Origin: a virus | Virus record (IMG/VR): IMGVR_UViG_3300021085_003174 | Span: 1 to 55,903 of that record | DNA length: 55,903 nucleotides | Reading direction: 5' to 3' (one strand) | Program-made: the position numbers and the translations under genes | Shown here: positions 3-28,637 of the stretch, one piece after another | Layout: each line of letters starts with the position of its first letter | How positions within the stretch are numbered: position 1 is the stretch's first letter | Notes under the pieces: generated by a model | Database searches by the model: none | Seen by the model: the letters and a program-made list of their open reading frames with translations, nothing else | Told to the model about the DNA's origin: nothing

Positions 3-1916
3 GATTTAGGTACATCGAACAGTTGTGTTGCGGTGGTAGAAGCAGGAGAACCAAAAGTGATAACCAACTCAGAGGGAGCAAGAACTACCCCAAGTATAGT
101 TGGATTTGCAAAAGACGGACAACGACTTGTAGGTCAGGCCGCAAAAAGACAAGCAATCACTAATCCAGAGAATACAATTTTTTCTGCGAAACGTCTTATA
201 GGACGAAAATACAAAGAGATAAAGAAAGAAGTTAAAAATCTTCCTTATTCTGTTGTATCTGGTAAAAACGGAGATGCATACATTAAATGCAAAGATGGTG
301 ACGAAGAAAAAGAATATGCACCTGAGTTTATTGCAAGTGTTGTTCTTGGTAAATTAAAAGCAGATGCAGAAGCATATCTTGGAGAAGAAGTAACACAGGC
401 AGTTATCACTGTACCTGCTTACTTCAATGATTCACAACGACAAGCAACGAAAGATGCAGGTGAAATTGCAGGACTAGAAGTATTGCGTATCGTTAATGAA
501 CCAACAGCTGCATCTCTTGCATATGGGTTAGAAAAGAAAAATGAAGAAACCATTGCAGTTTACGACCTTGGTGGTGGAACATACGATGTATCTATTCTTG
601 AAATAGGTGACGGAGTATTTGAAGTTAAATCTACCAACGGTGACACTCAACTGGGTGGTGACAACTGGGACGATACTCTCATTGACTATTTAGTATCTGA
701 GTTCAAATCAGAATCTGGAATTGATTTGCAAGAAGACGGACAAGCAATGCAACGACTTAAAGAAGAGGCAGAAAAAGCAAAAGTTGCGTTATCATCAAGT
801 GCGTCCACCACAATAAATCTTCCATTTATTACGGCAGATGCAAGTGGACCAAAACACTTAAACATTGATGTTACTCGTAGTAAGTTTGAACAAATTTGTG
901 ATTCTTTATACCAACGAACAAAAGAACCTTTTGAAAAGTGCCTTGATGATGCGGGTATCACCATGAGTGATGTTAAAAACCTAATTCTTGTTGGTGGAAT
1001 GACTCGCAGTCCTAAAGTTGTTGAAATAGCAAAAGAACTTGCAGGTGGCAATGATCCACACCAAGGAGTCAATCCCGATGAGGTAGTTGCACTTGGTGCA
1101 GCCATACAAGGTGCTATATTAGCAGGAGACGAAGGTGTAAGTGATGTTTTGCTATTGGATGTAACTCCACTTACCCTTGGAATAGAAACGCAGGGTGGTG
1201 TGTCCACACCCATGATAGAGCGTAACACTACAATTCCAACAAAAAAGTCACAGATATTCACAACTGCAAGTGATAATCAACCAGAAGTAGACATTGTTGT
1301 GCTTCAAGGAGAACGAGCAATGTCTACCGACAATAAGAAACTTGGTAACTTCAAGTTAGATGGAATACAACCTGCTCCAAGAGGAACACCTCAAGTTGAA
1401 GTTACATTTGATATAGACGCAAATGGTATTTTGAATGTAAGTGCAACTGATAAAGGAACTGGTAAAGATCAAAAGATTACTATTAGTGATTCGAGTGGTC
1501 TTGATAAAGATGAAGTTGAAAAGATGAAAGCAGATGCGGAAAAGTATGCAGATGAAGATAAAAAGAAGAAAGAAGGAATAGAACTTCGCAATCAAGTAGA
1601 TTCAGGTGTTTATCAAATAGAAAAAATGTTGGAAGAAAACAAAGAAAAAATTCCAGAAGATGAGGTTAAGTCAACTAACGAACTTCTTGAAACTACTAAA
1701 AAAGAACTTGAAGATGCAACAATTGAACCCTCTAAGTTGACCGAATTGTCAAAAACCTTAATGGATCATGTACAAAAACTAATTCCATATACACAACCAA
1801 CCGAAACACAGGAAACTACTGAGGGTAATGCAGAATCACCTACCAATAATGAAGAAGATGTAGTAGATGCTGATTTTGAAGTTGTAGATGAAGAAGAAGA
1901 AAAAACTTCTAGTTAA
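3..1916 (+). CDS. dnaK: Molecular chaperone DnaK (Hsp70), 5' end outside the window
   Basis: This is an ATP-dependent Hsp70 chaperone. The reading frame is already open at base 3 and begins with [13 protein letters not shown], the first phosphate loop of the ATPase, so only a few residues are missing. An internal GTG at 33 is not the real start. Further actin-fold motifs follow: [44 protein letters not shown] and LVGGMTRSP. The interdomain linker [13 protein letters not shown] leads into the substrate-binding domain and lid. The tail is acidic ([14 protein letters not shown]), as in bacterial DnaK, and the roughly 640-residue length is normal. DnaK is uncommon in phages. With the Hsp20 gene at 54039 it suggests a phage that brings its own protein-folding support, perhaps for virion assembly; that role is inference. 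Confidence 0.97.
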
Positions 1917-3671: not shown

Positions 3672-4142
3672 ATGAACTTTATTTATTTTATTTGTCCAGA
3701 AAACCAACAACTCGCAAAATATTGCGAAGGATTCTATAACTATTTAACATACGGATATAAAACTTGGAGTCGTGATAGGTATGTTCAATCTTCTCCGAAG
3801 GAAAAGGTGGGTCAATCCCGGATGTTAATGAGAAAAGATGCCCCTCAAACTGAAGAAATGAAAGCAGGTGATCCGGTCCTCGACAGAATATACCAAAAGG
3901 TAATTACAAGTGATTGTTATGAACACTCATATAGCAGACTAACTGACTTAGATATACACAAAAGTGAATTGATGATATTTATCACATCGAGTAAGAATCC
4001 CAAACGACCTCCTGCTTATTTATATACCAAAACCAACTCAGTTGTTGTTTGGAAGGTATCTAACGTAAATACATTAAGTTCAAACAAGTATCAACTACTT
4101 GAGTCGTTAATTAGAAAAATGGCAAAACCAAATCAATCGTAA
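3672..4142 (+). CDS. Protein of unknown function (156 aa)
   Basis: No family is recognised. The protein has aromatic-rich ends (NFIYFICPENQQLAKYCEGF) and a basic middle; no membrane segment or catalytic motif is evident. Its stop codon lies inside the convergent metalloprotease-like gene, a 10-bp tail-to-tail overlap at 4133-4142, and no terminator separates the two. Transcription from the two sides may interfere. Confidence 0.7.
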   Translation: MNFIYFICPENQQLAKYCEGFYNYLTYGYKTWSRDRYVQSSPKEKVGQSRMLMRKDAPQTEEMKAGDPVLDRIYQKVITSDCYEHSYSRLTDLDIHKSELMIFITSSKNPKRPPAYLYTKTNSVVVWKVSNVNTLSSNKYQLLESLIRKMAKPNQS

Positions 4143-6865
4143 AGATTTTCTACAAGTTCTCCGAAGTTACGCATAATAATACCGGCACACGCATTTGCTT
4201 CGTTCTCTATATCACTTCCTGTTTCACCACTATCCACTTCAAGAACTCCAAGTTCATTTTGTTTTTGATGCACCATTTCATGTGCTAAACTTCTACATAC
4301 ATCTGGAAATGCTCTGCCTTTTGTATATATAGAAATCTCATTTGTGTTTGGATCATAACAAGCAGCTGTCATATGCTCATGTCTTTGTGTTAAAAGTTTA
4401 ACCGATACCTTTTCTTTTAATTGCAATGCTTTTCTTGCAAACTTGATAAACTCTTGAACATTGTCTTTGTTCATTGCGACTTCGTTTAATGATTCTTTTG
4501 TATATTTCATATCTGGATGTTTGGTATCTGAATTGTTTTTGGAAATTATTTTATCATTAGAAAAGGATTCCGCAGGAATGTCATTACCAAGATACATTTC
4601 TTTGAATTCCTTAAACCATTGGCCAAAAGTAAAATCACCGATTCTTAATCCATAATCGTGAATGGTTTGTTCTTTAAAGTGATTTGCAACTCCACCTATA
4701 AAGTGATAATAACTTCCACTCTTCTGTACTTTCACATTCGGAAATCCTTTGTCTTTTAACATTTTGGAAACTTGTGCACCAGATTTAGGTGATGACTTCA
4801 TATTGATTTCTTGTATTTTCATTTCGTTTATATTTGCTCCACCTGTTCTGACAATTTCACGAAAGAACCAACGAGTCCACTCTCCGAGTTTGCCTGGTCC
4901 TTTTACTATATATAGTTTAAATGCTTCTGCAAATGCTTCTTCCGGATTTGTATTTCCGTAATTAGTAATATGTTCAATTGGAATTTCTTTACCAGGTCCA
5001 ACCCACCTATCTGCTAATTTTGTTACAACTTCTTTTTTATTTTCTGCTGACCAAACAGATGTCATTTGCAATGCTTTGAACTTTGCTTTGGTCTCGGCGT
5101 TGGTTTCTTTTTTATCAATGACTTTCAATCCTGCTCGTCTTTTATGTATCTTGCTTCCATTCTTATCAAAATACTTTTCTACATAATCCTCTACATCTTT
5201 ACGTTCAATAGATACCTTCTTGCTTTTGATTGTATCTTGCCAATGCTTCTTTGCATTAGATGGAACGTTGCGATACCAAAAACGATGTCCGAGTTCGTGG
5301 GTAAATGTATCTTGAGTCATTCCACATCCGTACAACTTGAGCATATCTTTATTCATATAATACTCACCATTAACCATATCGTTGCTATTATCGGATGTTA
5401 ATCCAAAATCTAAATCAACGGTTAATCCTTCTATACACTTTCCGAATCCTGCTTTTTGAATTTTCTTTGACCAACCTTTAATTCCACTTACTAAATCCTT
5501 GAAACTTTTTTCACGACTTGCTTCTCCTTGAGGACTTCCTCCTTTTCTTTTGAAGTTGTGAATAACCAACTTGACTGGTCCTATTTGTGCTTGCTCAATT
5601 GGTTTTTCTCGTTCTTGGTCACCTTCTATTGCTATGTATTGAAGAAGTGCTTTTATTCCCAAACGGAATTCTGCACGATACCTTCGAATATTTGTTTCTC
5701 GTTCTTTAGCAAGTCTACTTGGACTCACCTTGTGCTTTTTATCTATAAAGTCCCACATCTCTGGAAAGTTTCCACCAAGACCCGTAACTGCTCTCCAGCA
5801 TTTTTCACGAACTTCCTTTTCCTCCCAAGTTTCCATTTTATCACTGGCACCTTGCCATTTGTACTGCAAAAAGAATTTGTAAACCCATTGTTCAAAGTTT
5901 TCTTGGAATGTACCAAATGCTCTTCTTACTTTCTTAAAGTCTTTGATTGTCTGTGGGTCTTCACTATTATCACCAATTGATTTGTATGCTTTAGTAAGAG
6001 CTCTTAAATCCTTTGCCCACTTCTTTACTGAGTTGCTATCAACCTTTACTTTGCTTTCTGAAATGATTTCCGACAGATTACCTTTTTGTATATACATATA
6101 TAAACCTGCTAATCGTTTCTTAAACTTCTTGAGATATTTACTGTTGATATATGTAAGAAAGTCTTTATCAAAAAACTCTACATCAATTGCCCAATCTTGA
6201 AATGATTTGTAACTTTCTAATTTCTTCTTTTTAAAGTCGGCAAGAAATTCCGGACGATGTGCGAACCGATCAGATAGATTTTTCCATACACGAACTATCT
6301 GAGATTGTCCTGCTTGATAATATGCATTAAATTCTTCTGGTGTGTTGTAATATCCTTCTATATCTTGTGTATCTAAGTACTTGGCACTTGTTTTTCCTAA
6401 ACCACGACTACGATACCTCAAATGATCAAGAAAGTGTATATATTCGTGAATGAATGTATCTTTATCAAGACGAGTATCCATATACTTGCCATTGTAATCA
6501 CCAAGTAGATTAGCATTTACAATTACACCTTTAAATGATATTCCACCGACTTTCAAACTTTTGTTTGTGAAACCACCTGCGATTGTTACTCCACCACGTG
6601 ATGAACTTTTTGTTGGAATGAAAAATAATACTACCTCACTTAAAGACGGAAAGTTTTTATCTATGTCTGTTCCTCTAAGAGCAACACCTTTCCATTGTGT
6701 AAGTGGTATAAATGGTTTGTTGACTATACTATTCTCACCTTCACCTTCTAATTTATCTTTATGTTTAGTTAAAAACCGCACCACTTTATCATATGCTTTT
6801 TCGGCAATTCCTGTGTAATACATATCTTGCTCTACATTTGCTTCTTTTATATAGGTGCTATTCAT
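4133..6865 (-). CDS. Large protein with three HExxH metalloprotease-like modules
   Basis: The product is about 910 aa. Counting from a TTG one codon upstream of the chosen ATG (subtract 1 for the ATG), zinc-protease helices occur at HEYIH (141-145), HELGH (524-528) and HEMVH (863-867). Each is followed by a candidate third ligand: TPEEFNAY (about 177-184), NPEEAFAE (641-648) and ENEANA (about 888-893). The first two resemble the gluzincin HExxH...PEE-F/AE pattern; the third is a compact HEMVHQKQ...E-N-E-A type. Linkers are lysine-rich and helical. No signal peptide is seen. ATG at 6865 is preferred over TTG at 6868 because TATATTTAT-type boxes lie just upstream. It is probably a virion or injected protein, or one acting on host or capsid proteins; no substrate is evident. 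Confidence 0.85.
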   Translation of the reverse strand: MNSTYIKEANVEQDMYYTGIAEKAYDKVVRFLTKHKDKLEGEGENSIVNKPFIPLTQWKGVALRGTDIDKNFPSLSEVVLFFIPTKSSSRGGVTIAGGFTNKSLKVGGISFKGVIVNANLLGDYNGKYMDTRLDKDTFIHEYIHFLDHLRYRSRGLGKTSAKYLDTQDIEGYYNTPEEFNAYYQAGQSQIVRVWKNLSDRFAHRPEFLADFKKKKLESYKSFQDWAIDVEFFDKDFLTYINSKYLKKFKKRLAGLYMYIQKGNLSEIISESKVKVDSNSVKKWAKDLRALTKAYKSIGDNSEDPQTIKDFKKVRRAFGTFQENFEQWVYKFFLQYKWQGASDKMETWEEKEVREKCWRAVTGLGGNFPEMWDFIDKKHKVSPSRLAKERETNIRRYRAEFRLGIKALLQYIAIEGDQEREKPIEQAQIGPVKLVIHNFKRKGGSPQGEASREKSFKDLVSGIKGWSKKIQKAGFGKCIEGLTVDLDFGLTSDNSNDMVNGEYYMNKDMLKLYGCGMTQDTFTHELGHRFWYRNVPSNAKKHWQDTIKSKKVSIERKDVEDYVEKYFDKNGSKIHKRRAGLKVIDKKETNAETKAKFKALQMTSVWSAENKKEVVTKLADRWVGPGKEIPIEHITNYGNTNPEEAFAEAFKLYIVKGPGKLGEWTRWFFREIVRTGGANINEMKIQEINMKSSPKSGAQVSKMLKDKGFPNVKVQKSGSYYHFIGGVANHFKEQTIHDYGLRIGDFTFGQWFKEFKEMYLGNDIPAESFSNDKIISKNNSDTKHPDMKYTKESLNEVAMNKDNVQEFIKFARKALQLKEKVSVKLLTQRHEHMTAACYDPNTNEISIYTKGRAFPDVCRSLAHEMVHQKQNELGVLEVDSGETGSDIENEANACAGIIMRNFGELVENLYD

Positions 6866-6870
6866 CAAGT

Positions 6871-6896
6871 ATAAATATTAACTACCTATAAATATA
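6871..6896 (-). promoter_or_regulatory. Two tandem TATATTTAT boxes ahead of the triple-HExxH gene
   Basis: Reading the minus strand, TATATTTATA (6896-6887) is followed by AATATTTAT (6879-6871). The second ends 5 nt before the ATG at 6865. No SD sequence is present. Both are in the orientation of transcription. Confidence 0.55.
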
Positions 6897-9471: not shown

Positions 9472-10590
9472 TTATTTCAATAATTGATCGGGATTGAGTG
9501 GAATTAAATCGTTAACAACGAACTCTCCGTCTTTACGAATAAGTTCATCATCAAAGTAAATTTCACCTCCACCATAATCGGGTCTCTGAATTTTAACCAT
9601 ATCCCAATGAACTTGCGAATCGTTGCCATTACTTGCATCGTCATAACATTGACCTGGTGTAAAGTGAAAACTTCCACCAATCTTTTCATCAAATAAAATG
9701 TCACGCATAGGTTGAACAACATACGGATTGAATCCAATAGCAAACTCACCAATGTATCTTGCTCCATCATCACTATCAAGAATTTCATTTAGTGCTTCTG
9801 TGCTTGCATCACTATTTGCAATTGCGTCCACAATCTTTCCGTTTTTGAATTCCAACCGAATTCCGTCAAAGTCTGTTCCACGATAAATTGTGGGAGCATT
9901 AAATTGAATGTGTCCTTGAACACTATCCTTGATTGGACAACTGAATACTTCTCCATCCGGAATGTTGTGAGTTCCTCCACACGCAACTGCACCTATATCT
10001 TTGATAGAGAAACGCAAATCTGTGTCATCTCCTTTGATGTGAACCTTGTCTGCGTTTTGCATTCTTGTTTGAAGGTTACTCATACCCGGATTAAACTTAG
10101 AGTAATCAAAGGTGCATACATCAAAAAAGAAATTCTCAAATGCTTCGGTACTCATATTTGCTTGTTGTGCCATTGCAGGGGTGGGCCATCTTAAAATACA
10201 CCACTTGGTTTCATTTACACGATAATCAAGATATGGTTTAGTTACCTTAGACATCATCGTTTTGATGTCTGCATCTACATCACTTGTTTCGTATATATTG
10301 TTTGAACCTGCAATAGCAATGTAAGCATCCATTTCTTGAATCTTGGGCATACTGAATTTCATAAAGATTTCCATTTGCTCTTTGGTTGCGTGTTGCATAA
10401 TCTCACGACCAATACGACTTTGTGAAGTTTGCACAAACGGAATTCCACCATATTCACGAACTGCACGGACAAGTGCAATCGTCATATTGGCAGGCACTTC
10501 TGTGTTGTCTATTAATACTTTTTCTCCTTTTTGCAAAGACACACTGTGTCTTATTAAAAGGTCTGCTAGTTTTGTGTAATTTTGTTCCAT
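9472..10590 (-). CDS. M29-family metallo-aminopeptidase (AmpS/PepS type)
   Basis: This 372-aa protein resembles thermophilic-type aminopeptidases of family M29, which remove N-terminal residues with two metal ions. All five expected metal ligands are visible: E214 in NIPDGEVF, E282 in [10 protein letters not shown]309 in GSFHFTPGQ, and H328 and D330 in VHWDMV. The length is close to the usual ~400. It is unusual in a phage. It ends in an AT-rich intergenic region and follows a three-helix membrane protein gene by 3 nt. It may recycle peptides or process phage or host proteins; that is inference. Confidence 0.9.
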
Positions 10591-23844: not shown

Positions 23845-25398
23845 ATGACTAAACTTAAGTGTACAAAAAAATCATGCTTGTATCCAGAAACGTGTGACTG
23901 GAACAATATGTGCATGATGGAACAACTTGAAATAAGTAATTCCGCAAGACTAAGTGAAACCTCAATTGATAAGATTGGGGTTCTTTTGTGTCATGGATTC
24001 CTGTCCAAACATGAACAAATGGTACCGTTGAGCAATTATATATACGAAACCCTTGGTTGGGAAACTAGTTTAGTTGAATTAACTGGACACGGATATGATC
24101 AAGAAAATATTGCAACTGCAACTTGGAATAATTGGGTTGATGATGTAAAAGAAAAGTATTTAAGTTTGCGTAAACGATGCGATAAAGTTTATATGATTGG
24201 ATTTTCTTTGGGTGGTTGTATATCTGCATATGTTGCAAGTTTAAAAAGCATACGACCAGAAGGATTGATTGTTGTAAATGGTGTGTTTGGTGTTAAGAAT
24301 GTTTTCAACAAACTTCTTCCTGGTGTAATGATCTACAACAAAGTATGCAGTAAATTGAAACTTCAAAAAATTATGTTGGAATCTATAACTAATGACAGTG
24401 AAGATCCTGATTTGAATCAACCTCTTGTGAATTTGTCGGCAACAAACGAATTGCGTAAAATGTCTAAAATAGCAGGTACTATATTACAAGATGTTAAATG
24501 TCCTACCTTTTTGATTCAAGAATACAACGATCCAACTGTATTTTATGGAAGTGGAAAACGAGCATTCAAAAAACTCGGTGCTACTTTCAAACGATTTTAT
24601 ACAACTAAACTAAATACTCATCTTACAATACATGACAAGGGAATGGAATGTAGTGTGTTTTGTAAAATATTGGAATTTCTAAAAGATGTAGAAAAGGACG
24701 ATTTCGTTAATATTGCTCATCGTGGAGCAAGTGGTGACTTTACTGAAAACACCTTGCAGGCATTTGAAGAAGCAATTGATCGTGGGTGTAATGCAATAGA
24801 ATTTGATGTACAATCAATAGGAAATCGTTTTAGAATTTTTCACGATACAAACTTTAAGAGAATGTTTGGGCTTGATTTAAAAACCAACGAAGCATCTGAA
24901 TTAGATGTAAGTAAACTAACTTACACCAATCTTGAAAAACTTCCTACCTTACAAGAAGCACTTGATTGTATAAATGGTCGTGTTGACGTTAACATTGAAA
25001 TCAAAAGTAATCAAGTTGCTGTAAACATTGCTAATATAGCAGAATCATATTTAGAAAAACCAGAGTGGAAAAACAAAAGCATTACTTTATCGTGTTTTAG
25101 TTTTGCTACTGTAAACACACTGTATAGATTCCGAAAAAAAGCACAACTTTCATATTTGTTGTACGATCAGTATTGTAATTTAGAAGAAATCAAACGACTT
25201 AAAGATGATTACATTAAATATAATATTCATTCTTTGAATCTTCCACTTGAAAGTATTTCCAAGCAAATCATTGAATATTGCAACGACAACAACATTAGAA
25301 TATATGTATATACCGTAAATGAAATCAAACAAATTCGTTATTTACGAGAGTTGGGTGTTAATGGTGTATTTACCGACTTTCCTAAATTGATACGATAA
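23845..25398 (+). CDS. Fusion: alpha/beta-hydrolase (lipase/esterase-like) plus glycerophosphodiester phosphodiesterase
   Basis: This 517-aa protein joins two enzymes. Residues about 43-285 are an alpha/beta hydrolase: LLCHGF (oxyanion region), TGHGYD, the nucleophile elbow GFSLGG (S121), with a likely acid D229 in QEYNDPTV and base H259 or H263. Residues about 287-517 are a GDPD TIM barrel: NIAHRGASGDFTENT (H292, R293), IEFDVQ (E319, D321), FHDTNFKR (H333) and VNIEIKS. Together they could deacylate a lipid and then cleave the glycerophosphodiester. An early Cys-rich patch (CTKKSCLYPETCDWNNMC) is distinctive. A variant box (TATATATTGGA) lies directly before the ATG. Confidence 0.92.
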   Translation: MTKLKCTKKSCLYPETCDWNNMCMMEQLEISNSARLSETSIDKIGVLLCHGFLSKHEQMVPLSNYIYETLGWETSLVELTGHGYDQENIATATWNNWVDDVKEKYLSLRKRCDKVYMIGFSLGGCISAYVASLKSIRPEGLIVVNGVFGVKNVFNKLLPGVMIYNKVCSKLKLQKIMLESITNDSEDPDLNQPLVNLSATNELRKMSKIAGTILQDVKCPTFLIQEYNDPTVFYGSGKRAFKKLGATFKRFYTTKLNTHLTIHDKGMECSVFCKILEFLKDVEKDDFVNIAHRGASGDFTENTLQAFEEAIDRGCNAIEFDVQSIGNRFRIFHDTNFKRMFGLDLKTNEASELDVSKLTYTNLEKLPTLQEALDCINGRVDVNIEIKSNQVAVNIANIAESYLEKPEWKNKSITLSCFSFATVNTLYRFRKKAQLSYLLYDQYCNLEEIKRLKDDYIKYNIHSLNLPLESISKQIIEYCNDNNIRIYVYTVNEIKQIRYLRELGVNGVFTDFPKLIR

Positions 25399-25425: not shown

Positions 25426-26982
25426 ATGGATGTTGTCCAACATTATCTATCTGAGATTGATTTAACTGATGTTCCATCTGAACTAGGAATATTGTTGAGT
25501 GAAGCTGCCACTACAAATGCTTCGGATGCCGAAGTTGCTATTTGTGTTGCGTACAACATCAAACAAGGTAAGAAAGAGGCAGATGCTCTTAAATCAGCAG
25601 GTGTAGACAAAGCAACTTGGAAAAAGATTAAAGCAAATAAGTTAGTATATAGTGCAGGTAAAAAAGTTGCGAAAGGATTAAAAAACATTGGAGGTACTTT
25701 GATATGGTCAGGAAAAACATCTGCATCTACATTTTACAAAAACGGAAAAAAAGAAGCATCAAAAGCAGACTTAATAGGAAACAATCGTAATCGTTTGTCG
25801 GTAAAACAAACAAGCAGTTCGGCAAAAAGTGCTCAACTTGTAAGTGGAACTTCGGGAGAAGCAATCGGAGTATTTGAATTTGCCGTTAAACATTTAGAAG
25901 CAAGTGGTGGAAAACTTGCGAACGATTCAGAGATTAAAGAGTTGTTTGATATCTTTGAAAAAGAAATGTCAAAAGCAATTCGTACTGATATAAATGTGGA
26001 AGTTGGAAAAGGTAAAAAAGATTTTCGTGATTGGGTTATATCGGACAGTGGTCGTTTTGATGTTGTTAAATCAAAAGCAAAACAAGCAACGGACGATGAA
26101 ATAAAACGACATATTCGTGCAGAGTTGGCAGTTAATAATGCTATATCAAATGCAGATGCTCCCAAACTTGAAGGAGATTACATTAAAGGAGTTAAACCAT
26201 TAACTGCAAAACAAATCAGCAAGATGCGTTCTGATTATATTGCGTCTGATATGAAAATCGGTGATGTTACAATTGCTAAAGATTATCTTGAAAAAGCAGA
26301 TGTACCTTCTGATTTATTAACCAAGGAAGCACTAAGAACTCAAATAATGGATTTGATTGATGTAGCATTAAAAGCAGATACTTGGAAAAATCGTATTCGT
26401 GAAATTATACAAAACAACACCGAACTTAAAAAGTGGATTGTGTATGAAGCTGCAAGTGGTCTTGGTAAGTTTACCGGCAAAGCATCTAAAGGAGGAAACT
26501 ACTTTGGTGATAATACTGCGGTTGCTAACAAGATATTGGTATTTGATTCTAAAGGTGTAAAGAAAGTACACGATTTATTCAAGTGGTCACAAAGCAATGG
26601 TAATCTTTGCAATAATGTAGATATTAGTTTCAAAGGAAGTGGTCGCAGAAAATTCATTAAGTTTGGATTGGCTGCTGAATCTATTAATCACAACATAGAA
26701 AACATCATAACCGAAGAATACAACAAACTTGAAGATCAATTAAAACTACTCAACGAAGGTAAAATTTGGGACACCATAAAAAGTGGATTTGATTCTGCGT
26801 CAACTTGGGTTAAAGCATCGTATGATAAAATTGAAGTTTTACTTTTGCAGTTTTATGAAAATGCTATAAAGAAGGTTCTTGATTACTTTTGGGAACTATT
26901 TCAAAAAGGATTGAGTCCTGTGCTTGAAAAAATGGGATTCATTATGGAAGGTGTATGTTCGTTATCTGTTCCCGTTTGGTAA
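25426..26982 (+). CDS. Probable virion protein, paralogue A (518 aa)
   Basis: The function is not known. It starts MDVVQHYLSEID, contains VYEAASGLGKF at about residue 339 and a following VDISFKGSG, and ends in long amphipathic helices (SFDSASTWVKASYDKI-like, FYENAIKKVLDYFWELFQKG). The same plan occurs in the next gene, so they are diverged duplicates. [LI]-x-E sites (YLSE, LLSE, LLNE) resemble T4 prohead-protease cleavage sites. A lysine-rich, soluble, box-controlled protein fits an internal head or injected protein; this is inference. Confidence 0.75.
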   Translation: MDVVQHYLSEIDLTDVPSELGILLSEAATTNASDAEVAICVAYNIKQGKKEADALKSAGVDKATWKKIKANKLVYSAGKKVAKGLKNIGGTLIWSGKTSASTFYKNGKKEASKADLIGNNRNRLSVKQTSSSAKSAQLVSGTSGEAIGVFEFAVKHLEASGGKLANDSEIKELFDIFEKEMSKAIRTDINVEVGKGKKDFRDWVISDSGRFDVVKSKAKQATDDEIKRHIRAELAVNNAISNADAPKLEGDYIKGVKPLTAKQISKMRSDYIASDMKIGDVTIAKDYLEKADVPSDLLTKEALRTQIMDLIDVALKADTWKNRIREIIQNNTELKKWIVYEAASGLGKFTGKASKGGNYFGDNTAVANKILVFDSKGVKKVHDLFKWSQSNGNLCNNVDISFKGSGRRKFIKFGLAAESINHNIENIITEEYNKLEDQLKLLNEGKIWDTIKSGFDSASTWVKASYDKIEVLLLQFYENAIKKVLDYFWELFQKGLSPVLEKMGFIMEGVCSLSVPVW

Positions 26983-27011: not shown

Positions 27012-28637
27012 GTGGATATAGTAGAACATTATATTAAAAACATAGATACTTCTTTTGAAGTTGATGATATATTATGTGAACTTGCATTGCACGATTTGTT
27101 TAAACGAGATAACAAGCAACGATTCATTGACAAAGTTGATGGTAACGAAGTTCTTGATGATAAAAACAACCCTCTTAAAATTAAAAGTGGTACTACTGCT
27201 TTATGGAAAGATATGAAGAAGCAACTTTTATCTGCAACAGACAAAGATGGGATTGCTGATTGGGGTGGTCGTGGTGAAACCAAGATAAAACAACTATTTG
27301 GTGTTCCTATTAGTAAAATAGGCAAATCTCAGAATGATATGAGTGGGGGAGCAAGTAGTGGAAATCCAAGTGGGGAAGATTGGGAAGCAATGATTGCTAT
27401 TGGTCTTGCTACTATTGAAAAGAAAGACCCATCAAAAGAAGTACCTGACGAATGGTCAAGAATAGAACGAAAGGGTTTTTGGGATAGTGAATTTAATCGT
27501 GACATCGCAGAAAAGATTGCAAGTGCATTTAAGAAAAACGGATATGCACCCATTTCGCAAACTGGTAGTGGAAAGGGTGGTGTGGGTGTATCAAGTGAAT
27601 GGGGAGAGATATTCAAAGAATACGGAAGTGGTAGTATGAACAAAACTCCAAAGACTGACCTCAAGGGAGGTTCAAAGAAAATTTCATTAAAAAAAGCAGG
27701 TGGTTCTCAAGCAATGAGTGCCAAGCAAGCTGAAGCAGCTTCTACATTCGGAGCAGCTGTTAGTATGTATGGTAAAAATTATCCAAGTAGTGTAAATAAA
27801 ATCTTAGATTCATTTAAGAGTTCAATTCTTGATTTATCTGAAAGTGGTTACCGTGGTAGTATATCTGCTCTTGAAAAAGACATCAAAGCAAGTGAAGGTG
27901 ATCCAAAGAAAATGAAGAAACTTAAACCAGTAGTTGATAATTTGAAGCAAGCAAGAGATGATGGTAAGTTTATTACATCGGAAATGAATCGTTTGTTTTT
28001 AAGTGATTCAAAATTCAAAGACTTGTTTGTATTCGAGGCTGCTACCGGTTCTGTTAAGTTTGGGGATTCTTCGGAAAGTCGTGCTGATACTATGGTGGAA
28101 ATTGATACTGATAGTGGTAAAATTACATCACAATACAAAATGAATTCTCCAAGTGATATTTCTTCACTAGCAAGTCAATACAAGTTTTATTTGTCATTCA
28201 AAACAAGTGGTAATAGCACTCCTTATATGGCACTTAGAGGAAATATGGAACAAGACCCAAAGAAGGTTACTGCGTGGATGAAGAAGCAGGTTGTAGAAAA
28301 TAAAAACTTTTCAACGATATGTCCAACATTTTCTAGTATTATTCAAGAAGGTTTCAAACAAGACGATTTTGGAAAAAGATTATTAACTGAATCAAGTTAT
28401 CAAAATCTAAATGAATGGCAATTACTTAAAAAGGTTCGTGACGGAATAACATCTGTTAGCAACAAGGTAAAAGACCGTTTTGTTAAAATATGGAATTGGA
28501 TTTCCGAACGAGTTTCTGTTGCATTTGATTGGTTAAAGAAGCAAGGAGCAAAAGCACTTGTTTATCTTCAAAAGTTTTTTGGAGTGAAACTTGACAAGTG
28601 TGGAATAAATGGAAAGATAGAACTTTTCTCTGCTTAA
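27012..28637 (+). CDS. Probable virion protein, paralogue B (541 aa, GTG start)
   Basis: A diverged copy of the preceding gene. It opens (M)DIVEHYIKNID, matching MDVVQHYLSEID. It has VFEAATGSVKF at the same position (about 339), then YLSFKTSG, and ends in amphipathic helices (VRDGITSVSNKVKDRFVKIW, WLKKQGAKALVYLQKFFG). The middle is Gly/Ser/Lys rich. A GTG start is supported by the alignment with its paralogue. LLTE and LNE sites near the C terminus again resemble prohead-protease sites. It ends directly against the convergent methyltransferase gene. Confidence 0.75.
   Translation: MDIVEHYIKNIDTSFEVDDILCELALHDLFKRDNKQRFIDKVDGNEVLDDKNNPLKIKSGTTALWKDMKKQLLSATDKDGIADWGGRGETKIKQLFGVPISKIGKSQNDMSGGASSGNPSGEDWEAMIAIGLATIEKKDPSKEVPDEWSRIERKGFWDSEFNRDIAEKIASAFKKNGYAPISQTGSGKGGVGVSSEWGEIFKEYGSGSMNKTPKTDLKGGSKKISLKKAGGSQAMSAKQAEAASTFGAAVSMYGKNYPSSVNKILDSFKSSILDLSESGYRGSISALEKDIKASEGDPKKMKKLKPVVDNLKQARDDGKFITSEMNRLFLSDSKFKDLFVFEAATGSVKFGDSSESRADTMVEIDTDSGKITSQYKMNSPSDISSLASQYKFYLSFKTSGNSTPYMALRGNMEQDPKKVTAWMKKQVVENKNFSTICPTFSSIIQEGFKQDDFGKRLLTESSYQNLNEWQLLKKVRDGITSVSNKVKDRFVKIWNWISERVSVAFDWLKKQGAKALVYLQKFFGVKLDKCGINGKIELFSA

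What the first reader, a model, noticed from the sequence alone, without database searches (positions are those of the whole stretch)
4133..6865. One protein with three separate HExxH zinc-protease motifs
Seen: HEYIH, HELGH and HEMVH, each with its own downstream acidic third-ligand candidate (TPEEF, NPEEAFAE, ENEANA), spread over ~910 residues. The first two modules look alike, the third differs. Known: HExxH plus a distal Glu defines gluzincin-type peptidases. Inference: a duplicated and then fused protease, perhaps carried in the virion, expressed from TATATTTAT boxes.
Basis: partly seen in the sequence, partly recalled or inferred. Interest (0 to 1): 0.8.

Follow-up and report, generated by a model that had tools for sequence, protein, structure and literature searches.

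The report
Three-protease phage polyprotein with cut sites
A T4-type bacteriophage makes one long protein that joins three unrelated predicted zinc proteases, and the joints carry the short signal that the phage's own head-maturation protease cuts, so the protein is probably loaded into the virus head, cut into separate enzymes and injected into the host.

Summary
Window 6865→4133 (-) encodes a 910-aa protein with HExxH at aa 140, 523 and 862; seven 87-94% identical relatives keep all three. Each keeps HExxH plus a downstream Glu across divergent homologues. Models place both on helices for modules 1 and 3; module 2 could not be modelled.

The new point is at the joints. [I/L]xE, the published cleavage signal of T4 prohead protease gp21, lies at all four module borders (5 of 20,000 shuffles do so). 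Of 24 other fused proteins carrying module 3, 22 have it just upstream, against 1-12 for decoy motifs. Standalone module genes often begin with a short tag ending in [I/L]xE, resembling T4 capsid-targeting sequences. Relatives encode gp21 and gp23.

Best reading: a packaged cargo polyprotein, cut apart by gp21 in the prohead and injected (confidence 0.7). Phage proteins with several metallopeptidases are known (PMC5512222); punctuation with prohead-protease sites and fusion of tagged cargo genes were not found in the papers searched. Packaging, cleavage and protease activity are inferred, not shown.

The parts
4133..6865 (-). 910-aa three-metallopeptidase polyprotein gene (ATG 6865, stop 4133)
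   Evidence: ORF; seven relatives
6888..6896 (-). TATATTTAT promoter-like box just upstream of the ATG; same place in relatives G004 and G007
6842..6865 (-). N-terminal tag MNSTYIKE (aa 1-8), ends in I-K-E; candidate capsid-targeting propeptide
6068..6841 (-). Module 1 (aa 9-266), zincin-like metallopeptidase; standalone gene in LR756508, Salicola phage SCTP-2 and others
6434..6448 (-). HEYIH, module 1 (aa 140-144)
6332..6334 (-). E178, invariant third-ligand candidate of module 1, in NTPEEFNAYYQ
6056..6076 (-). Border 1/2: L-S-E / I-I-S-E (P1 Glu at aa 266 and 270)
4823..6055 (-). Module 2 (aa 271-681): helical N-terminal region plus zincin-like metallopeptidase; separate gene in L153-L155, L157 and LR745208
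5285..5299 (-). HELGH, module 2 (aa 523-527)
4925..4942 (-). EEAFAE (aa 642-647), third-ligand candidates of module 2
4808..4831 (-). Border 2/insert: I-N-E / M-K-I-Q-E (P1 Glu at aa 681 and 686)
4511..4807 (-). Optional insert (aa 687-785), present in window, L002 and L006, absent in L003, L004, L005, L007 and L008
4481..4510 (-). Internal start-like tag MKYTKESLNE (aa 786-795), ends in L-N-E
4136..4480 (-). Module 3 (aa 796-910), small zincin-like metallopeptidase; at least 570 matching stretches in viral contigs, alone or fused
4268..4282 (-). HEMVH, module 3 (aa 862-866)
4205..4207 (-). E887, invariant third-ligand candidate of module 3, in ENEAN

Best explanation
The protein is a head-cargo polyprotein of a T4-type phage. 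Shown: it joins three unrelated metallopeptidase-like modules, each with conserved HExxH and a downstream Glu, and the published T4 gp21 cleavage signal [I/L]xE lies at the N-terminal tag and at every module border. Inferred: it is made late; its N-terminal tag puts it into the prohead core; gp21 cuts at the [I/L]xE sites during head maturation and frees three proteases; these stay with the DNA and are injected, where they cut host proteins early in infection (targets unknown). Inferred evolution: each module was once a separately tagged cargo gene, and head-to-tail fusion kept the tags, which now serve as internal cut sites.
For: One ORF with all three motifs in seven relatives. Only 12 [IL]xE in 910 aa, and all four borders have one; 5 of 20,000 shuffles match this. 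Borders were placed from homologues: module 1 stands alone and ends near aa 266; a separate module-2 gene starts MKLKRYLNE at about aa 270; module 3 stands alone as MNYKQFLRES... in phage B23. 22 of 24 non-redundant fused proteins have [IL]xE within 26 aa upstream of module 3; decoys 1-12 of 24; none inside the domain. In 14 giant relatives [IL]xE is 1.43 per 100 aa in linkers and 0.36 in domains, a fourfold ratio; decoy ratios are 0.65-1.23. Module-2 homologues carry four different C-terminal tails after GGANIKE, three of them behind an internal M[DN]LI[DE]KYLGE peptide of a type that also begins neighbouring separate genes. The five relatives over 130 kb encode S77 gp21 and gp23, as do 11 of 12 long records in the first set of other records with these modules. 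gp21 and gp23 of relative G007 carry [IL]xE at the expected places. T4 IPIII begins MKTYQEFIAE and IPI has ITE after its tag. gp21 specificity and targeting sequences: PMC9026906. Late-type box upstream.
Against: No proteomic or biochemical data. The gene lies among replication genes, not in the head cluster. [IL]xE is a weak motif: 36% of neighbouring ORFs have one in their first 22 residues, against 10 of 14 for module 1, so a single site proves little. Module 2 could not be modelled, and most of its distant homologues are in records without a detectable S77 protease. A few [IL]xE sites lie inside the modules.
Confidence: 0.7

Rival explanations
1. Self-processing polyvalent protein: the metallopeptidase modules themselves cut the chain, before packaging or after injection, as proposed for other phage polyvalent proteins (PMC5512222); gp21 plays no part.
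For: Polyvalent proteins with one to five metallopeptidase domains, with proposed autoprocessing, are described in PMC5512222. Residues for activity are conserved.
Against: The border motif is the gp21 motif and is enriched also in fusions of other domains with one metallopeptidase; separate single-module genes carry it at the N-terminus too.
Confidence: 0.13
2. Uncut multidomain enzyme: packaged or made in the cell, it works as one chain, and [IL]xE in linkers is incidental helical composition.
For: Short motif; neighbouring ORFs also have it often. N4 virion RNA polymerase is packaged unprocessed (PMC5512222).
Against: Decoys of similar composition are not enriched at borders; the modules occur as separate genes; tails are exchanged just after the sites.
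Confidence: 0.12
3. Intracellular early or middle enzyme with no link to the virion; the gene sits beside the clamp loader and near DnaK.
For: Gene position near replication genes.
Against: TATATTTAT box shared with terminase, tail and other structural genes and not found before the polymerase or clamp-loader genes of the relatives; targeting-like tag and gp21 sites.
Confidence: 0.05

Closest known systems
Phage polyvalent proteins (Iyer et al. 2017, PMC5512222)
   Same: Large multidomain phage proteins with one to five zincin-like metallopeptidase domains, presumed injected; some have more than one such domain.
   Different: Here the modules are separated by T4 prohead-protease sites and begin with targeting-like tags; that paper proposes metallopeptidase autoprocessing. 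Membership in its 12 metallopeptidase clades was not tested.
T4 internal proteins IPI-IPIII and Alt (capsid-targeting sequence, gp21 processing)
   Same: Short N-terminal peptide ending in [I/L]xE, phage with gp21 and gp23, accessory head cargo.
   Different: T4 cargoes have one functional unit per gene; here three predicted enzymes are in tandem with internal sites. No homology to the internal proteins or Alt was found.
phiKZ and SPN3US ejected head proteins
   Same: Many head proteins cut C-terminal to Glu by a prohead protease, large ejected cargo (PMC9026906).
   Different: Different cleavage motif (S/A-x-E in phiKZ) and different cargo.
Minimal metallopeptidases: selecase (4qhi), M78/IrrE-like, DUF6782
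   Same: Module 3 model matches selecase at Foldseek probability 0.90-0.96; sub-threshold Pfam hits to DUF6782 and M78.
   Different: Foldseek E-values are weak (about 0.5) and Pfam cut-offs are not reached.

Membership tests
Zincin metallopeptidase, module 1 | HExxH plus downstream Glu, conserved and on helices | tested here: met
   H140, E141, H144 and E178 invariant in 14 sequences, 12 of them 19-33% identical to the window; model puts HExxH on helix 135-151 and E178 on helix 176-195, block pLDDT 77-93 with dips to 52 and 67
Zincin metallopeptidase, module 1 | Overall fold match to a solved zincin | tested here: inconclusive
   Foldseek no significant hit; VIA lists collagenase G/H, PPEP-1/2 and lethal factor only at Z 2.1-3.2
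Zincin metallopeptidase, module 2 | HExxH plus downstream Glu conserved | tested here: met
   HE[LM]GH and NxEEAFxEA conserved at 25% identity; further homologues
Zincin metallopeptidase, module 2 | Motifs on helices facing a shared site | tested here: inconclusive
   pLDDT about 24-31 in this part of the model
Zincin metallopeptidase, module 3 | HExxH plus Glu; N-terminal helix, three strands, two helices | tested here: met
   Invariant residues; model helix, three strands, HExxH helix, Glu helix, block pLDDT 65-92
Zincin metallopeptidase, all modules | Zinc binding and peptidase activity | not testable with these tools
   needs biochemistry
Pfam ATLF, Reprolysin_3, Peptidase_Mx (module 2) | Score above the curated cut-off | tested here: not met
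   14.5, 13.1 and 14.2 bits against 27.4, 22.4 and 27; Reprolysin_3 21 bits for the whole protein
Pfam DUF6782 / Peptidase_M78 (module 3) | Score above the curated cut-off | tested here: not met
   DUF6782 19.3 bits against 27 for the window; M78 19.5 against 22 in the B23 homologue
Polyvalent protein | Phage-encoded multidomain protein with metallopeptidase domains | tested here: met
Polyvalent protein | Delivered into the host | not testable with these tools
   no proteomics
T4-type gp21-processed head cargo | N-terminal propeptide ending in [I/L]xE | tested here: met
   IKE at aa 6-8 invariant in relatives; homologues have LFE, LLE, INE, LNE
T4-type gp21-processed head cargo | Phage encodes gp21 (S77) and gp23 | tested here: met
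   5 of 7 relatives; the two negatives are 61- and 76-kb fragments; the window itself is a fragment
T4-type gp21-processed head cargo | Sequence homology to T4 internal-protein targeting peptide | tested here: inconclusive
   Similar in length and pattern to MKTYQEFIAE; too short to show homology
T4-type gp21-processed head cargo | Presence in heads and cleavage in vivo | not testable with these tools
   needs virion mass spectrometry
   E = 0.13 over 12 residues

The most novel reading that the evidence does not exclude
T4-type phages known mostly from metagenomes have a cargo-polyprotein system: genes for unrelated enzymes, each once bearing its own capsid-targeting tag ending in [I/L]xE, fuse head to tail, and the prohead protease turns the chain into a set of separate injected enzymes. 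The three-protease protein of this window, the 1,400-2,100-residue nucleotidyltransferase/metallopeptidase/ligase-like giants and the module-2 fusions would all be members.
Probability: 0.6. Interest if true: 0.78.

Novelty: new variant of a known kind. Interest (0 to 1): 0.64.

Why it matters
If true, sequence alone predicts which unknown phage proteins are injected and where they are cut: look for [I/L]xE tags at N-termini and domain borders in phages with gp21. That would turn many hypothetical proteins of environmental T4-type phages into a testable list of injected effectors, and would offer a second answer, besides metallopeptidase self-cleavage, to how multidomain injected phage proteins are processed.

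Tried and rejected
Duplication of module 1 to give module 2: BLASTP shows only the motif. Assembly artefact or chance fusion: rejected, since seven independent contigs keep the ORF. Pfam, NCBIfam or PHROG families for the whole protein: nothing above a cut-off. PDB by sequence: no match; profiles of modules 1 and 3 gave only chance hits. Foldseek against PDB for module 1: no significant match. The module 2+3 model is poor except for module 3; its helical-bundle matches say nothing about the peptidase. N-terminal [IL]xE frequency alone is a weak test because neighbouring ORFs have it in 36% of cases; genome-wide N-terminal enrichment in G007 and G004 was modest (71 against 54.5, 83 against 48.8). 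Insert aa 687-785: no match in phage records nor elsewhere in the loci held. Papers on T4-type polyproteins cut by prohead protease: none found with the searches made, which is not proof of absence.

Full report
WHAT IS THERE. The ORF at 6865-4133 (-) encodes 910 aa, starting at the ATG at 6865, one codon inside the TTG that the ORF list gave. HExxH occurs at aa 140, 523 and 862; shuffles of the same composition never gave three. Seven IMG/VR contigs encode relatives 87-94% identical to it, all uninterrupted. Two arrangements exist: with (window, L002, L006) or without (L003, L004, L005, L007, L008) a segment of about 100 aa between modules 2 and 3.

THREE SEPARATE FAMILIES. Module 1 (aa 9-266) is found as its own gene in an uncultured 484-kb phage (LR756508), in Salicola phage SCTP-2 and in other viral contigs; 14 sequences keep H140, E141, H144, E178, N180 and Q184. 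Module 2 (aa 271-681) is a separate 454-aa gene in LR745208 (E = 3e-10 in a pairwise comparison) and, at 36-38% identity, a gene in L153-L158. Module 3 (aa 796-910) is a large family in viral contigs, at least 570 stretches, as genes of about 125-146 aa or inside proteins of 300-2,100 aa.

ARE THEY PEPTIDASES. AlphaFold2 places HEYIH of module 1 on helix 135-151 and E178 on helix 176-195. The module-3 part of the second model shows helix, three strands, HExxH helix and Glu helix, and Foldseek ranks selecase, a minimal metallopeptidase, third to fifth (probability 0.90-0.96, E about 0.5). This is the arrangement described for phage metallopeptidases in PMC5512222. Module 2 was not modelled with confidence; its HE[LM]GH and NxEEAFxEA are conserved. 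No curated Pfam cut-off is reached by any module. Activity is untested.

THE JOINTS. T4 prohead protease gp21 cuts after L/I-X-E (PMC9026906). The 910-aa protein has twelve [IL]xE, and sites lie at the N-terminal tag (aa 8), at the module 1/2 border (266, 270), at the module 2/insert border (681, 686) and just before module 3 (795). Having a site in all four windows happened in 5 of 20,000 shuffles. The windows were set after seeing the sites, although the borders themselves come from the homologues, so this number is indicative only. The other tests are stronger. Of 24 non-redundant proteins with module 3 inside a longer chain, 22 have [IL]xE in the 26 aa before it; decoy motifs reach 1-12 of 24, and a stretch inside the domain has none. 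In 14 giant relatives [IL]xE is four times denser in linkers than in the nucleotidyltransferase, metallopeptidase and ligase-like domains (174 in 12,137 aa against 30 in 8,415 aa; composition predicts 121 and 67), while seven decoys differ by less than twofold. The rows are related, so these are not independent trials; decoys measured on the same rows are the control.

TAGS. Separate module-1 genes begin MKTFGNWLLLE, MKKFSKILLE, MLLRDLFE, MKLTHLFE and the like; module-2 genes MKLKRYLNE; module-3 genes MNYKQFLRE or MKRFTQYLTE. T4 IPIII begins MKTYQEFIAE. In L154, L155 and L157 near-identical peptides M[DN]L(V/I)xKYLGE begin several neighbouring genes whose further sequence differs, and a peptide of that type occurs inside module-2 fusion proteins after GGANIKE, in front of different C-terminal tails. 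In L154-L157, 15 of 36 ORFs have a [KRDE][YF][LM]..E tag in the first 22 residues (0 in shuffles; 1 of 71 in the loci of S77-negative records). This tag pattern was written after looking at these loci, and their contigs are fragments of 7-38 kb in which no S77 gene was found. The internal MKYTKESLNE before module 3 in the window protein fits the same picture: a tagged gene fused in frame with its tag.

PHAGE TYPE. Five of seven relatives encode S77 gp21 and gp23; the two without are 61- and 76-kb fragments. In the first set of other records carrying homologues of module 1, 2 or 3, 11 of 12 of at least 130 kb have both; the exception is LR745208, which was brought in by module 2. In the second set, brought in by module 2, only one of 13 has S77. 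Hand-scored, N-terminal [IL]xE is present in 11 of 12 S77-positive and 1 of 8 S77-negative long records (Fisher p = 0.0008). Two S77-positive records with doubtful start codons were left out, and the negatives are all module 2, so family and phage type are confounded in that test. gp23 of G007 has LIDE|G, and gp21 has INE|S near the N-terminus and IHE|ILGE near the C-terminus.

EXPRESSION. TATATTTAT occurs 16 times in the window against 2.3 expected. In G007 and G004 most sites are intergenic; they stand before terminase, tail and other structural-type genes, and one stands 23 bp before the polyprotein gene. This fits a late promoter but does not show one.

MECHANISM. Best supported: late synthesis, tag-directed loading into the prohead core, gp21 cleavage into three proteases, injection with the DNA, cutting of host proteins. 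Steps from loading onwards are inferred from T4 (PMC9026906, PMC9958956). The main rival is self-processing by the metallopeptidases, as proposed for polyvalent proteins (PMC5512222).

NOVELTY. Multi-metallopeptidase polyvalent proteins are known, and so are gp21-processed T4 cargoes. A chain of cargo enzymes punctuated by prohead-protease sites, with tags captured on fusion, was not found in the papers searched. I rate it a new variant of a known kind.

Noticed in passing
L160 4281, L161 4464, L164 4308, L170 4320, L173 4557: Module-2 homologues in large contigs without S77 protease share another N-terminal pattern, RxVAxR[FY]L-like (6 of 71 ORFs of these loci, 0 in shuffles); possibly a tag of a different packaging system.
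   Followed up: partly
L026 15450-17978 (-), contig G007: A second candidate polyprotein (842 aa) in a relative: tag ending ELLNE|S, cytidylyltransferase-like domain, later IITE|GG before a KLDG ligase-like region; lies a few kb from the terminase gene.
   Followed up: partly
L074, L105, L118, L138, L140 and similar: Giant proteins of 1,400-2,100 aa with NMN-adenylyltransferase-like, metallopeptidase and KTDG ligase-like domains; domain order differs in L140 (metallopeptidase, ligase-like, adenylyltransferase-like).
   Followed up: partly
window 25426-26982 and 27012-28637 (+): Two proteins of unknown family with similar N-termini (MDVVQHYL.., VDIVEHYI..), each behind a TATATTTAT box; the first has LLSE and a G007 relative of the second has LLNE early, so they may be packaged too.
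   Followed up: no
window 9472-10590 (-): Phage-encoded M29-type aminopeptidase (Pfam E = 2.5e-54).
   Followed up: no
window 33-1916 (+): Nearly full-length Hsp70/DnaK encoded by the phage; G007 also has a DnaJ-like gene behind a TATATTTAT box.
   Followed up: no
window 23845-25398 (+): Fusion of an alpha/beta hydrolase with a glycerophosphodiester phosphodiesterase domain.
   Followed up: no
L009 3947 and 5750: Two module-1 genes within 2 kb in LR756508.
   Followed up: no
L061 4050-5396: Module 1 fused behind another domain with an internal MKTFKQFLMKES peptide, again tag-like at the joint.
   Followed up: no
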